This document shows, piece after piece, positions 23,143 through 38,696 of a stretch of 44,541 nt of DNA (position 1 is the first letter of the stretch; each line of letters begins with the position of its first letter). The translations under genes and the position numbers were made by a program. The stretch lies in the NCBI GenBank assembly GCA_017302015.1, contig JAFLEE010000035.1, positions 1 through 44,541 on the forward strand, read 5' to 3'. Below the pieces are notes generated by a model that was not told the origin of the DNA, made no database searches, and saw nothing but the letters and a program-made list of their open reading frames with translations. The DNA is from Spirochaetota bacterium. GTDB lineage: Bacteria > Spirochaetota > UBA12135 > COTS27 > JAFLEE01.

Positions 23143-23939
23143 TCGACCTCCATACCCACACCTGGCGCTGCAAGCACGCCAGCGGCACGGTCGCCGACTA
23201 CGCCGCGTCCGCCGCGAACCGCGGCATCTCGGTGCTCGGCGTCAGCGATCATGTCCCGCTCCCCGATGGCGCCTGGCCCGAGCCGCGCATGGGGATGGAC
23301 GAACTCCCCGCCTACCTGGAAGAAATCGCGGAAGCCCGCCGAAGGCATGTCGGGCTGCGGATCCTCGCGGGCTTCGAGTGCGAGTACCATCCGCGCTATG
23401 AAGCCTATTACCGCGAGGAACTCCTCGGCCGCCTCGGCCTCGATTACCTCATCGCCGGCCAGCACTGGTTCGATGCCCCCGGGGGCATCCAGAGCGTGTA
23501 CGATCCCGCTGGCCCCAAAAGCGTTCGGGCCTACGCCGCCAGCGTGGTGGCCGCCATGAAGTCAGGCCTCTTCGCCTTCATCGCCCACCCCGATCTCTTC
23601 GGGTATTTCCATCCCCGATGGGACGGGGAAGCCCTCGCGGCCTCCCGCGAAATCCTCTCCGCGGCGGCGGAACTCGGCGTCCCCCTGGAAGTCAACGGCC
23701 TCGGACTGAGGAAACCCGTCCTCCGGACGGTCGAAGGCGTGCGTCCCCCCTACCCCTGGTCCCCTTTCTGGGAACTCGCCGTGGAGTACCCGGTCGTGGT
23801 CTGCTTCAATTCCGACGCCCACCGGCCCGAGGACGTCGGGGCGGGCATCGCGGAGGGCCATCGCCTGGTCTCGGCCCTCCCGCTCGCCGAAATCCGGGAG
23901 GCCCCCCTCTCGCGCCGTTCTTCGGAGACCGTTCCGTGA
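23139..23939 (+). CDS. PHP-domain phosphoesterase (histidinol-phosphatase-like)
   Basis: A 266-residue PHP-superfamily metallohydrolase. The metal motifs are DLHTHT (residues 3-8), SDHVPLP near 38, GFECEYHP near 88, AHPDLFGY near 149 and NSDAHRPEDVG near 229. Layout and size match HisK/YtvP-type histidinol-phosphatases, but other phosphate-ester substrates are possible and no other his genes are near. The start is TTG at 23139, whose TTGA overlaps the preceding stop, implying translational coupling to the lipoprotein. Confidence 0.9.
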   Translation: MIDLHTHTWRCKHASGTVADYAASAANRGISVLGVSDHVPLPDGAWPEPRMGMDELPAYLEEIAEARRRHVGLRILAGFECEYHPRYEAYYREELLGRLGLDYLIAGQHWFDAPGGIQSVYDPAGPKSVRAYAASVVAAMKSGLFAFIAHPDLFGYFHPRWDGEALAASREILSAAAELGVPLEVNGLGLRKPVLRTVEGVRPPYPWSPFWELAVEYPVVVCFNSDAHRPEDVGAGIAEGHRLVSALPLAEIREAPLSRRSSETVP

Positions 23940-23959
23940 AGCGCGTTGGAGAAACGCGA

Positions 23960-25822
23960 ATGATGAAATGGCCCCCACGGGCCCGGAGGTGCGCGGTGCG
24001 GACCCTGCCGGGCATCCTCCTCGCCATCGGCCTCCTGGGCGCGGACCCCGGGCGGGTCGCCATCGTCATCGGGGTGGATCCCTATCTCTATCTCGCCCCG
24101 TTACGGGCCGCGGAAAACGATGCTCGCCTGATGGGGCCGTGGTTGGCGTCCAATGGCTTTAACGTCCAGACGTTCCTCGGTTCCTCCCCCGACCTCGCGC
24201 GCCGCCCCACGCGCAGCGTGGTCCTGAGGCAGTTGGAGAACCTCGCCGCCCGGTCGGCGGAAGAACCGCCGTCCCAGGTAGTCTTCTATTTCGCCGGGCA
24301 TGGTTGCGCCATCGCGGGGGTGAATTACCTCTGCTTTCCGGACGCGGATGTACAGGTGGAATCCGGCATGCTCTCCATCGATACCGACCTCCTCCCCGCC
24401 CTGCGGCGCATCGACGCCGGGCAAACGATCGTCCTCTTGGACGCGTGCCGGGAGAACGTCACCCTCACGCGCAGCGCGCGAACCCGGGGCCTCAGCATTT
24501 CCGAACTCCCGCGGCGGGAACGGGGCGGCGGGATCTTCATCGTCTATGCGGCGCGGCCCGGCGGCTTCTCCCTCGAGAAAAAAGACGGCTCCCACGGCTA
24601 CTTCACGGAGCAGGTGCTGCGCGGACTTTCGTTGCCCGCCCTCGATACCCTCGACGCCCTTTCCCGTTGGCTGCGCGCCACCGTCGCCGACCTCACGGAG
24701 AAGGAGACCGGATACGCCCAAGTGCCCTTCATCGGCGGCGATTTCGATCCCGCCGCGACCTTCCGTTTGGGCGCCCCGGCGGGCCGCGCGCCTTCCCCCG
24801 TCACCCCGCCGCCGGCCGCCCCGTTGCCCCGCTTCATAGCGCCCGCGGTTGATGCGACCGTGGACCCCTCGGAACGCCGCCCGCGGGTGGCCATCCTGCC
24901 GATCCACTGCGAATCGGTTGAACTCGCGCAAACGGGGGAAAAAATCCAGGCCTTGCTGCGGGACGCTCTCGCGGAAGTGCCCTACCTGTCGCTCCGGGGG
25001 AATTTGGCGGGCCCCCCGGATCCTTGGACGGCCTGCCTGCCGAAGGATTGGCGGCGCCTGGCGAAGGAACTCGGCGCGGAAGTCCTGGTCGCTCCCAGCG
25101 TGGTCGCCTCCCCGAAAAAAGTCCGGCTGATCCTCACCTTCATCGATCACCGGGTCGGGGAAGCCATTCTGGACCAATCCCTCGCTTCGGAAAGCGTCCA
25201 TGAATGGGAAGAGAAGGTCGCGCGCATGGTGGGGGAGTTCCGCCGGGTCTACCGCGACCGGGTGATCCCCAAGGTGGAATGGAGTCCGCTCTCCCCCATG
25301 GGTCAGGTGCGGGGGCCGGCCGAGCTTGTTTGGTCACCCGCCGCGTCCCGCCTCCTTCTCGCCGAGCGGGGCAAAACCTGGGAACTGGATCCCGAAACCG
25401 GGAGCCGCTCCAAATCGACCGTCTCCGAGGAGGACCTGTGCCGCATGCGGGAATCGTCGCGGCAAGGCTTCCCCCCGGGCGCTTCACGTCTAGAGCGCGA
25501 CCCCTCCGGCGCCTGGCAATTGATCGCCGGATCGCGTCGAACGGCTTTGCCCGTCTCGTTCACCCCCGAGTATACGACCCTGAAGCGCGCTTTAAAGGAA
25601 CCCCACTTGATCGGCGGGGATACCGTGCTCTTCCTGGCGGAGCGGTCCCAGGGAGAATGGGCTCCCTTGGCCTGGTTCTGGAAGCTCGGCGTGGGCGTCG
25701 CCCTCGAACCCACCGCCAGCGCCTTGGCCCCGCTCCCCGGGGGCCGCCTCGCGGCCATCCAAGGGGACCAATGGCGCTTGGTGCGCCTTTCGATCCTGGA
25801 TCCTAGGTCGGCGACAAATTAG
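23960..25822 (+). CDS. Caspase-fold (C14) protein with TolB/LpoB-like second domain
   Basis: A 620-residue protein. A hydrophobic segment (LPGILLAIGLLGA, about 16-28) is a signal peptide or anchor. The caspase-like domain (about 30-270) begins RVAIVIGVDPYL, with catalytic His114 in FYFAGHGC and Cys163 in LLDACRENV, so both dyad residues are present. After a Pro-rich linker (about 275-305) comes a domain starting PRVAILPIHCES that has the layout of TolB-N/CsgG/LpoB-type periplasmic domains (about 310-430), then a beta-rich C-terminus resembling propeller blades. ATG 23960 has GGAG upstream; GTG 23936, overlapping the PHP stop, is an alternative. The target is unknown. Confidence 0.85.
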   Translation: MMKWPPRARRCAVRTLPGILLAIGLLGADPGRVAIVIGVDPYLYLAPLRAAENDARLMGPWLASNGFNVQTFLGSSPDLARRPTRSVVLRQLENLAARSAEEPPSQVVFYFAGHGCAIAGVNYLCFPDADVQVESGMLSIDTDLLPALRRIDAGQTIVLLDACRENVTLTRSARTRGLSISELPRRERGGGIFIVYAARPGGFSLEKKDGSHGYFTEQVLRGLSLPALDTLDALSRWLRATVADLTEKETGYAQVPFIGGDFDPAATFRLGAPAGRAPSPVTPPPAAPLPRFIAPAVDATVDPSERRPRVAILPIHCESVELAQTGEKIQALLRDALAEVPYLSLRGNLAGPPDPWTACLPKDWRRLAKELGAEVLVAPSVVASPKKVRLILTFIDHRVGEAILDQSLASESVHEWEEKVARMVGEFRRVYRDRVIPKVEWSPLSPMGQVRGPAELVWSPAASRLLLAERGKTWELDPETGSRSKSTVSEEDLCRMRESSRQGFPPGASRLERDPSGAWQLIAGSRRTALPVSFTPEYTTLKRALKEPHLIGGDTVLFLAERSQGEWAPLAWFWKLGVGVALEPTASALAPLPGGRLAAIQGDQWRLVRLSILDPRSATN

Positions 25823-36752: not shown

Positions 36753-36986
36753 TCGTTTTACCCGAAAAATCTTGTGATTTCATTCATGGGCGGGGTACGC
36801 CGTCGGATTGACTGACCAGATTCACGCGAGGGGGCCACGGATCCATCTGCCTTATTGTCCAATCATTTTCCAGCGGAGATGGCGAGCGAGGGCGAAGCAT
36901 CCGGTTTCTCCGCCAACCCTCGAATGTCGCCGATCCAGCCCAGGAAACGGTGTCAGGCCGTCGGGCTTCCGTTTGGATCCCAAATT

Positions 36987-37216
36987 GCGCCTTCCGGGCG
37001 CTGGGAACCGGTCTCACGCCATCCGGGCGTCGTGCCGGTTCCCACGTCGCGCCTTCCGGGCGCTGGGAACCGGTCTCACGCCATCCGGGCGTCGTGCCGG
37101 TTCCCTCGTCGCGCCTTCCGGGCGCTGGGAACCGGTCTCACGCCATCCGGGCGTCGTGCCGGTTCCCTCGTCGCGCCTTCCGGGCGCTGGGAACCGGTCT
37201 CACGCCATCCGGGCGT
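36987..37216. repeat. 62-bp tandem repeat, 3.7 copies, each with two nested hairpins
   Basis: Three full copies (36987, 37049, 37111) and a 44-bp partial copy (37173-37216) are almost identical; I saw one base difference, A for T at position 37044. Each unit starts with hairpin A (stem GCGCC/GGCGC, loop TTCCG). It then has hairpin B: a 9-bp outer stem GGGAACCGG/CCGGTTCCC, a 4x4 internal loop, an inner stem ACGCC/GGCGT and loop ATCCG. The core CGCC-WTCCG-GGCG thus appears eight times, with loops alternating T and A. All three plus-strand frames are open, because 62 is not a multiple of 3; I do not regard these as genes. Confidence 0.95.
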
Positions 37217-38696
37217 GAATACGCAGTTCCCGTAGCCGGGTCAGGAGGAAGGCGGAGAAAGTTCTAGAGGCTGGGGTGGAGCGGTTGTAGGAGTCGAGGC
37301 AAGTGACGAGGCGCAGGCGCCTCGGGTCGACTTGGGCGCAGACCGTCCCGCCATCATGGAAGAACCAATGGCGCGTGCCCCAAAGGCTGCCGATGCAGTG
37401 GTGGAGGCGCTGGCCGAGCAGGGCCAAGGCGTAAGGATCCTTCACGCGTAGTACCTCAAGGTCATCGGGGAGCGCGGGGATGATCGCGCGCGCGGGCGCC
37501 GGGATTGGCGCGGGGACTCTGGCCATTGGAAGCGGCCTGGGTGCGGCGTCGGGGATGGGAGGGACATACTGGTCCCAATGCTTCCAGGCCGCGCGGAAGA
37601 CGGTGTCGACGCCCATCATGCCGTGGTTCCAGGAGGCGTCTTTGAGGCACTGGATGAGGTTTCCCGCCACCGGGCGAAGGTGCGCCCGGGCCGGCGTGTA
37701 GCCGAACTCCTCCCAGATGCCCCGGCCATGGAGGATGTAGCGGTGGAGTTCATCCACCCTCCGGAGTTTCCCGGAGAAGGAGTTATCGCGCGGGTCCGCT
37801 CCCGGCATCGGATGGCGAGCGAGGAGTTGGTGGACCGCATCGGGTTGGAGGGGCCCCTGGAGGAAGGCTTGGTCCCAGACGCCGAGGACGTACCACCCGA
37901 GGCGCGTACGGGCCGGGGGATGGCCCTCCCGGCCGCGGCGCACCAAGCCCCCCGCCGGGAGATTGTGGGGGGCGCGTTTGATGAGGTTCGGGGCTTCCCG
38001 GTGCAGGCGCTGCCAAAGGGCCCAAATCGCCGCCCCACGACCGCGTTGCATGAGGCCGAGCCGCATGAGTTGCACGCGCCACGCGCCGAGGGTGGCATCC
38101 CACTCGTCTTCATGGATCGTCTGCGGAAGTTCGAAGTCGAGGGCCGCAAAGAGGCGCTCCACTAGGTGGCGCGCAAAACCCCGCGGGATTCGGGAAAGGT
38201 CTCCTTCCATGATGCGAAGAGGCTCCGGGGCCAGGATGCGCCTCAAAACCCGCCAGGCTTCCACGAAAAGCGGGTGGCGCCATAGGAGCTCGGAGCCCGC
38301 TTCTTCGAGGTCGATGAGGAGGGGGGCATGGGCCCTCGCCGCGATCCCCCCCAAGACTTGGGTCGATTCGAAGCCCTCGGGATTCACGGAGAGCGCAAGG
38401 GATTGGAGGACCCGATCGTTTCGCCCCCGTGACATTACCCGAACCAAGCGCCTCACGGAATCGAGGGAAACTCGGGGGGCGTTCCCCTTCCGTTGCGGAA
38501 AGCGGCGGAAGAGCATGGCGATCTGCCACGCGAGGAAACGCGGCTGGGATCCGAAAAAACTCGCCCAGGGAACCCAGAACGTCTCCCAGCGAAGGTCCCC
38601 CGGGGAGCGGATTGCCGCCTTCACCCCGTCGACCGCGAGCGTGAGAAAAAAATCCAGGCCGCGATCTGACATCCGCAGCGCCTTCGCCATCGCCAT
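37200..38696 (-). CDS. PcfJ-like protein
   Basis: A 498-residue protein of mostly helical, Arg/Leu/Trp-rich sequence. The C-terminal part from about 410 (LRVKDPYALALLGQRLHHCI, then GSLWGTRH) matches the PcfJ-type domain, with the HHC at 432-434 and a later LVTCLDSYNRSTP segment. PcfJ is named from the enterococcal plasmid pCF10; its biochemical role is not established. No recognised nuclease or transposase motif is visible in the first 400 residues. The final residues HARMA and the stop codon are encoded inside the 62-bp repeat array (37200-37216), so the array lies in its 3' end. A TAAAAT box lies at 38738-38743, about 42 bp upstream. The start may be ATG 38696, 38690 or 38669; ribosome sites are weak. 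Confidence 0.75.
   Translation of the reverse strand: MAMAKALRMSDRGLDFFLTLAVDGVKAAIRSPGDLRWETFWVPWASFFGSQPRFLAWQIAMLFRRFPQRKGNAPRVSLDSVRRLVRVMSRGRNDRVLQSLALSVNPEGFESTQVLGGIAARAHAPLLIDLEEAGSELLWRHPLFVEAWRVLRRILAPEPLRIMEGDLSRIPRGFARHLVERLFAALDFELPQTIHEDEWDATLGAWRVQLMRLGLMQRGRGAAIWALWQRLHREAPNLIKRAPHNLPAGGLVRRGREGHPPARTRLGWYVLGVWDQAFLQGPLQPDAVHQLLARHPMPGADPRDNSFSGKLRRVDELHRYILHGRGIWEEFGYTPARAHLRPVAGNLIQCLKDASWNHGMMGVDTVFRAAWKHWDQYVPPIPDAAPRPLPMARVPAPIPAPARAIIPALPDDLEVLRVKDPYALALLGQRLHHCIGSLWGTRHWFFHDGGTVCAQVDPRRLRLVTCLDSYNRSTPASRTFSAFLLTRLRELRIHARMA

What the first reader, a model, noticed from the sequence alone, without database searches (positions are those of the whole stretch)
36987..38696. 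PcfJ-like gene with an attached array of nested-hairpin repeats
Directly seen: a 62-bp unit repeats 3.7 times with almost no variation, and each unit folds into one small hairpin and one two-tier hairpin sharing the core CGCC-WTCCG-GGCG. The array begins outside the gene and ends inside its last codons. In the gene's mRNA the loops would read CGGAA and CGGAT, giving up to eight identical stems in the 3' end. Established: PcfJ-type proteins occur on a conjugative plasmid and elsewhere, and their function is unknown. Inference: the array may be a structured RNA or DNA substrate recognised by this protein, making a two-part system (protein plus repeat). It does not look like REP/RAYT (no transposase motif) or CRISPR (no spacers). 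The near-identity of copies suggests recent expansion or strong selection.
Basis: partly seen in the sequence, partly recalled or inferred. Interest (0 to 1): 0.78.

Follow-up and report, generated by a model that had tools for sequence, protein, structure and literature searches.

The report
Genome-wide CsrB-like GGA hairpin arrays
The repeat beside this gene is one of about 35 copies of an undescribed structured repeat that is scattered through this bacterial genome and some distant relatives; its hairpin loops carry the motif bound by the global RNA regulator CsrA, so it may be a set of CsrA-catching RNA sites rather than a partner of the neighbouring gene.

Summary
The array is real: 62 bp x 3.7, 36987-37216, reaching into the last 17 bases of a minus-strand ORF. 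It has nothing specific to do with that ORF. A covariance model of the unit finds 79 units at about 35 loci of this genome (E<=0.01), and a second model finds it in other families of the phylum. The unit, read on the minus strand here, is a simple hairpin B followed by a two-tier hairpin A, both with a pentaloop NGGAN closed by C-G, and a 5-nt linker. Stems change completely between loci but stay paired (280 of 1309 cells changed on both sides); the GGA loops stay. In the relatives the loops read CAGGAUG, CAGGAAG, CAGGAGG and CAGGACG, matching or nearly matching the published CsrB repeat motif CAGGA(U/A/C)G. One relative's element hits Rfam CsrB at E 2e-6, below the gathering score. The genome has a normal csrA and no Y1 transposase. 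The "PcfJ" gene matches no family; the genome's one Pfam-level PcfJ gene has no array. Best reading, unproven: a dispersed, locally amplified repeat whose transcripts present paired CsrA-binding hairpins. Main rival: a selfish hairpin repeat whose loop is recognised by something else.

The parts
36987..37216 (-). array of 62-bp units, (B-A)n when read on the minus strand
   Evidence: TRF; covariance model R1 hits 37012-37073, 37074-37135, 37136-37197 (E 1e-14 or better) and 36951-37011
37202..37216 (-). B hairpin 1, loop CGGAT; supplies the last codons and stop (TGA) of the ORF
37159..37197 (-). A two-tier hairpin 1: arms CCGGTTCCC/GGGAACCGG, inner stem GCGCC/GGCGC, loop CGGAA, linker GACGA
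37140..37154 (-). B hairpin 2, loop CGGAT
37097..37135 (-). A two-tier hairpin 2, loop CGGAA
37078..37092 (-). B hairpin 3, loop CGGAT
37035..37073 (-). A two-tier hairpin 3, loop CGGAA
37016..37030 (-). B hairpin 4, loop CGGAT
36987..37001 (-). A inner hairpin 4, loop CGGAA; outer arm degenerate (end of array)
37200..38696 (-). 498-aa ORF upstream of the array in sense; no family match; not part of the repeat system

Best explanation
The array is one locus of a dispersed, locally amplified family of structured repeats. The unit is read on one strand as hairpin B plus two-tier hairpin A; each shows a pentaloop NGGAN closed by C-G, the core of CsrA/RsmA binding sites. Proposed mechanism: when transcribed (as 3' or 5' ends of neighbouring mRNAs, inside other transcripts, or as separate RNAs) each unit presents two closely spaced GGA loops that a CsrA dimer can hold, and arrays multiply them, so that the transcripts titrate CsrA in the manner of CsrB/RsmZ and, where the unit lies in a leader or trailer, place that gene under CsrA. 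Shown: architecture, dispersal, covariation, loop conservation across the phylum, an intact csrA gene. Inferred: transcription, CsrA binding, titration, and that dispersal is by copying.
For: Model R1 (8 units): 79 matches at about 35 loci of the genome at E<=0.01. Covariation on 78 distinct aligned hits: 94.7% of cells paired against 70% in shuffles, 280 double changes against 77, slid structures 28-38% paired (the alignment was fitted to the model, but the unfitted 14-row A4 gives 98.1% against 75.6%). Among 14 diverse B-A units the B-loop GGA is invariant, the A loop is GGA in 13 and CGA in one, and the closing pairs are C-G (14/14 for A, 12/14 for B) while other stem pairs swap. In intergenic 5-nt-loop hairpins of 1.58 Mb of the genome, GGA is the mid-loop triplet in 55 of 288; the next triplet has 16; no such excess in coding sequence. 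In G011, G022, G042, G054 and G014 (other families of the phylum) the architecture recurs (16, 13, 15, 3 and 1 matches at E<=0.1) with different stems and loops CAGGAUG, CAGGAAG, CAGGAGG, CAGGACG. CAGGA(U/A/C)G in hairpin loops is the published CsrB repeat motif (PMC7652899). Rfam CsrB RF00018 hits the G042 element at 35.5 bits, E 2e-6. The genome encodes CsrA, 87 bits, with L4 and R44 kept (residue roles from my own knowledge), aligning to RsmE, whose structure with RNA is 2jpp. In G054 one copy lies in the rRNA operon spacer in sense, thus is presumably transcribed. In tandem gene pairs the sense orientation prevails 11 to 4.
Against: No binding or RNA data. The Rfam CsrB hits are below the gathering score of 71, and arrays of this genome score at most 16.9; the window array gives no CsrB hit. 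About one loop in seven in this genome reads NCGAN (11 of 77), which lacks the GGA that CsrA needs. SELEX sites prefer a six-nucleotide loop and four or fewer contiguous pairs (PMC7652899); these are pentaloops on 5-bp stems with a further outer stem. Four loci are antisense to both neighbours and 11 lie in divergent intergenic regions. No T-run follows the arrays, so no separate terminated sRNA is evident. csrA is in 57 of 60 phylum genomes, most of them without detected elements, so co-occurrence tells nothing. G-U intermediates are rare and pair swaps common (40 G-U, 24 A-C of about 1300), which a DNA-level origin could also give.
Confidence: 0.42

Rival explanations
1. A selfish, non-autonomous dispersed DNA repeat (REPIN/BOX/MITE-like). 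The hairpins are needed as single-stranded DNA or RNA during copying, the GGA loop is the recognition base of an unidentified mobilising enzyme, and tandem arrays arise by slippage; any effect on host genes is incidental.
For: Copies at unrelated loci in either orientation; shared subfamilies (arms TCGGTCGCC, CGGACGGC) at different loci and mosaic arrays; units overlap ORF ends and supply stop codons; stems nearly perfect Watson-Crick with few G-U, as arm-to-arm DNA correction would give; contigs C4, C107 and C47 end in or beside arrays.
Against: No Y1/RAYT transposase in the 93%-complete genome; no conserved terminal tag or inverted termini outside the stems; loops stay CAGGANG across families of the phylum while everything else changes, which needs a common recogniser; always the same strand within an array.
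Confidence: 0.33
2. mRNA 3'-end stabilisers or transcription-termination aids (BIME-like), selected at the ends of genes, without a specific loop-binding protein.
For: Many arrays begin within about 50 bases of a stop codon (window, L123, L141, L177, L183, L184, L194); very stable folds.
Against: 11 loci are in divergent regions and 4 antisense; no T-runs downstream in either sense; loop sequence conservation unexplained.
Confidence: 0.12
3. One reading: the array is the substrate of the adjacent PcfJ-like protein.
For: Adjacency and overlap with the last codons of the ORF.
Against: About 34 other loci without this gene; single copy of the protein, no relatives in 60 phylum genomes; the Pfam-level PcfJ gene of the genome has no array nearby.
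Confidence: 0.02

Closest known systems
CsrB/CsrC/RsmX-Y-Z sRNAs (Rfam RF00018 and relatives)
   Same: Many hairpins with GGA in the loop, motif CAGGA(U/A/C)G, in tandem on one RNA strand; csrA in the genome.
   Different: Dispersed at about 35 loci instead of one to a few sRNA genes; fixed B-A unit with a two-tier stem and 5-nt linker; no terminator; outside Gammaproteobacteria as far as can be told; below Rfam's gathering score.
REP/BIME/REPIN elements with RAYT
   Same: Intergenic palindromic repeats, amplified locally, scattered through the genome.
   Different: No Y1 transposase, no GTAG/CGTC-type tag, direct orientation of units, arms change completely between loci.
BOX elements of Streptococcus pneumoniae (own knowledge)
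   Same: Modular repeats with a variable number of internal units that fold as RNA beside genes.
   Different: Different modules and sequences; no GGA-loop signature known to me.
TAACTGA repeats of Beggiatoaceae (PMC4679880)
   Same: Genome-wide intergenic tandem repeats proposed as sites of a post-transcriptional regulator, CsrA among the candidates.
   Different: 7-bp unit without GGA; the author judged canonical CsrA unlikely for that reason.

Membership tests
CsrB/RsmB RNA (RF00018) | score over the Rfam gathering cut-off (71 bits) | tested here: not met
   35.5 bits in relative G042 (L228), 16.9 in own L183, none for the window array
CsrB/RsmB RNA (RF00018) | multiple hairpins with GGA in the loop on one strand | tested here: met
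   60 of 121 distinct hairpins (stem>=4, loop 5) in the arrays are C-NGGAN-G; within an array always on one strand
CsrB/RsmB RNA (RF00018) | binds and titrates CsrA | not testable with these tools
   needs binding assay or CLIP
CsrB/RsmB RNA (RF00018) | separate sRNA gene with Rho-independent terminator | tested here: not met
   no T-run over 6 within 60 bases downstream of arrays, no difference between strands
REP/RAYT | Y1 transposase (PF01797) in the genome | tested here: not met
   no match in G000, control genomes ring; genome 93% complete
REP/RAYT | conserved tag at the foot of a conserved palindrome | tested here: not met
   arms vary at nearly every position
PcfJ (PF14284), for the ORF | match to the Pfam model | tested here: not met
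   no hit even at E 10; the genome's PcfJ match is another gene, C81:22513
CRISPR | repeats separated by unique spacers | tested here: not met
   head-to-tail 62-bp unit, 99% matches, no spacers

The most novel reading that the evidence does not exclude
A bacterial phylum uses a mobile, amplifiable RNA element with paired CsrB-type hairpins that seeds CsrA-binding sites at dozens of genes, so that the CsrA regulon and the size of the CsrA sponge evolve by repeat dispersal and array length.
Probability: 0.25. Interest if true: 0.88.

Novelty: new variant of a known kind. Interest (0 to 1): 0.62.

Why it matters
CsrA is widespread, but antagonist RNAs of the CsrB type are described mainly in Gammaproteobacteria, and elsewhere the protein FliW is the known antagonist (PMC7652899). 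If these repeats bind CsrA, they would be a CsrB-like RNA system in another phylum, spread by repeat copying instead of as single genes, and a case where a dispersed repeat carries a defined protein-binding RNA module. Even without CsrA, a structured repeat that keeps its loops while exchanging all its stems across families of a phylum points to an unidentified recogniser.

Tried and rejected
Protein route: Pfam, NCBIfam, PHROGs, plasmid and phage tblastn, genome-contig scan with the 498-aa protein gave nothing. Strand test by G-U against A-C pairs: 40 to 24, leaning to the sense RNA but not independent and not decisive. Context test: sense bias 11 to 4 in tandem pairs, suggestive only. Terminator idea rejected for lack of T-runs. 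Same-order genome G002 (39% GC) shows no GGA-loop excess in a 400-kb sample. Rfam on the window: only chance matches.

Full report
What was checked first. It contains four hairpins GCGCC-TTCCG-GGCGC and four ACGCC-ATCCG-GGCGT, the latter wrapped by GGGAACCGG/CCGGTTCCC. On the minus strand, the strand of the neighbouring ORF 37200-38696, the loops are CGGAA and CGGAT. The array covers the last 17 bases of that ORF. Both strands fold far better than shuffles.

The gene is not the key. The 498-aa protein matches no Pfam or NCBIfam model even at E 10, no PHROGs family, has one copy in the genome, no relative at E 0.001 in 60 genomes of the phylum, and none in plasmid or phage records. The one Pfam-level PcfJ gene of the genome is elsewhere (C81:22513, 26-29 bits) and has no tandem array in the 3.1 kb fetched around it; BLASTP between the two proteins gives only E 0.089 around a shared HC-G motif.

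The repeat is a family. A search of the genome with the core CGCC-WTCCG-GGCG found further arrays with different units. Tandem Repeats Finder on 1.58 Mb of the genome found about ten arrays of period 52-62 with the same anatomy. Read on the strand with GGA loops, every unit is hairpin B (stem about 5, pentaloop), 2-4 bases, then hairpin A: outer arm of 7-10 bp, inner stem of 5 bp, pentaloop, a 5-nt linker (mostly R-A-N-N-A), outer arm. Several arrays clearly begin with B and end with A. A covariance model of eight units (R1) gives 79 matches with E<=0.01 at about 35 loci, in a genome of 5.43 Mb and 165 contigs. C4 and C107 end within 4-42 bases of an array and C47 begins inside one, so the numbers are lower bounds for copies, and C4/C107 may be two ends of one locus.

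Structure is conserved by compensation. On 78 distinct aligned matches 94.7% of cells pair, 280 cells are changed on both sides (77 in shuffles) and sliding the partners by 1-3 columns drops pairing to 28-38%. That alignment was fitted to the model; the ungapped 14-sequence alignment A4, placed by hand geometry, gives 98.1% paired and 53 double changes against 13.6. Many changes are swaps (G-C to C-G, A-U to U-A) and G-U pairs are rare, which fits strong selection on pairing but also DNA-level arm-to-arm correction.

The loop is the conserved part. In A4 the B-loop GGA is invariant, the A loop is GGA in 13 of 14, and the loops are closed by C-G (A 14/14, B 12/14) while neighbouring pairs swap freely. 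Over all arrays, loops are A or C, G (C in 11 of 77), G, A, then A/G/T, closed by C-G in 71 of 77 (the set was chosen by the pattern NSGAN). Without choosing arrays, among intergenic hairpins with stem>=5 and a 5-nt loop, GGA is the mid-loop triplet 55 times of 288, the next triplet 16 times; in coding sequence there is no excess.

Relatives. A second model in the order B-A (R2) finds the unit in five other genomes of the phylum: G011 16, G022 13, G042 15, G054 3, G014 1 match at E<=0.1 (G011 contributed one of the 14 model sequences). Their stems share almost nothing with ours, but the loops read CAGGAUG, CAGGAAG, CAGGAGG, CAGGACG, and the linkers AAUCA, GAACA, AAUAA, GAAAA. Some are tandem too (G022 C94, C101). 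In G054 a copy lies between the tRNA genes and the 23S gene of a ribosomal RNA operon, in sense. The same-order genome G002 has none. The phylum is not named by the tools; genome sizes, flagella and near-universal csrA suggest Spirochaetota, which is my inference only.

What it probably does. CsrB was recognised by its repeated CAGGA(U/A/C)G in hairpin loops, and SELEX sites for CsrA have GGA in a hairpin loop (PMC7652899). Rfam's CsrB model, made without these sequences, hits the G042 element at 35.5 bits, E 2e-6, though its gathering score is 71. This genome's CsrA is canonical and aligns over its RNA-binding domain with RsmE, entry 2jpp. I therefore propose that transcripts of these repeats hold CsrA on pairs of loops about 30 nt apart. 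Against this stand the NCGAN loops, the stable stems, the antisense and divergent placements (4 and 11 loci), the lack of terminators and the absence of any binding data. The strongest rival is a selfish repeat with an unknown recogniser; it is not a REP/RAYT pair, since no Y1 transposase is present. The two readings are compatible: a dispersing repeat can carry CsrA sites.

Novelty. I found no paper describing such a family (the library is open-access only). The nearest published idea is the TAACTGA repeat network of Beggiatoaceae, where CsrA was considered and set aside because GGA is missing (PMC4679880). I rate it a new variant of a known kind, with the caution that membership in the CsrB family is not met by score.

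Noticed in passing
L106:70-110 and 310-345; L143:640-690 and 1450-1510: A second kind of single two-tier hairpin with a very regular plan: arm ending GCA, C opposite T mismatch, GCGCnCC-NGGAN-GGnGCGC, T, TGC arm; arms differ between copies. Looks like a sister class with GGA loops.
   Followed up: partly
L235:1501-1558 (G054): A unit of the family sits in the spacer of a ribosomal RNA operon, between two tRNA genes and 23S, in sense.
   Followed up: partly
L228 and L234 (G042), about 1470-1610: The unit lies within a longer near-identical dispersed element of about 130 bp, with AGCAAAACA-like ends and a further covarying hairpin GGTYCACGATGRACC.
   Followed up: no
G000 stems, alignment A3: Compensated changes are mostly pair swaps with very few G-U intermediates, unusual for RNA families and unexplained.
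   Followed up: partly
L182, L180, L187, L188, L053: Where one hairpin of a unit has lost GGA (ACGAG or ACGAA), the other usually keeps it.
   Followed up: partly
L225:520-1797 (G000 C81): The genome's only Pfam-level PcfJ gene, 425 aa, without repeats nearby.
   Followed up: yes
window 23618-25822: ORF with a caspase domain (PF00656), 734 aa.
   Followed up: no
L109:7733-7858: Degenerate 34-bp tandem repeat with GTGGGGAATAT, unrelated to the family.
   Followed up: no
L233:2887-2974 (G022): Group II intron about 1.3 kb from a unit of the family.
   Followed up: no
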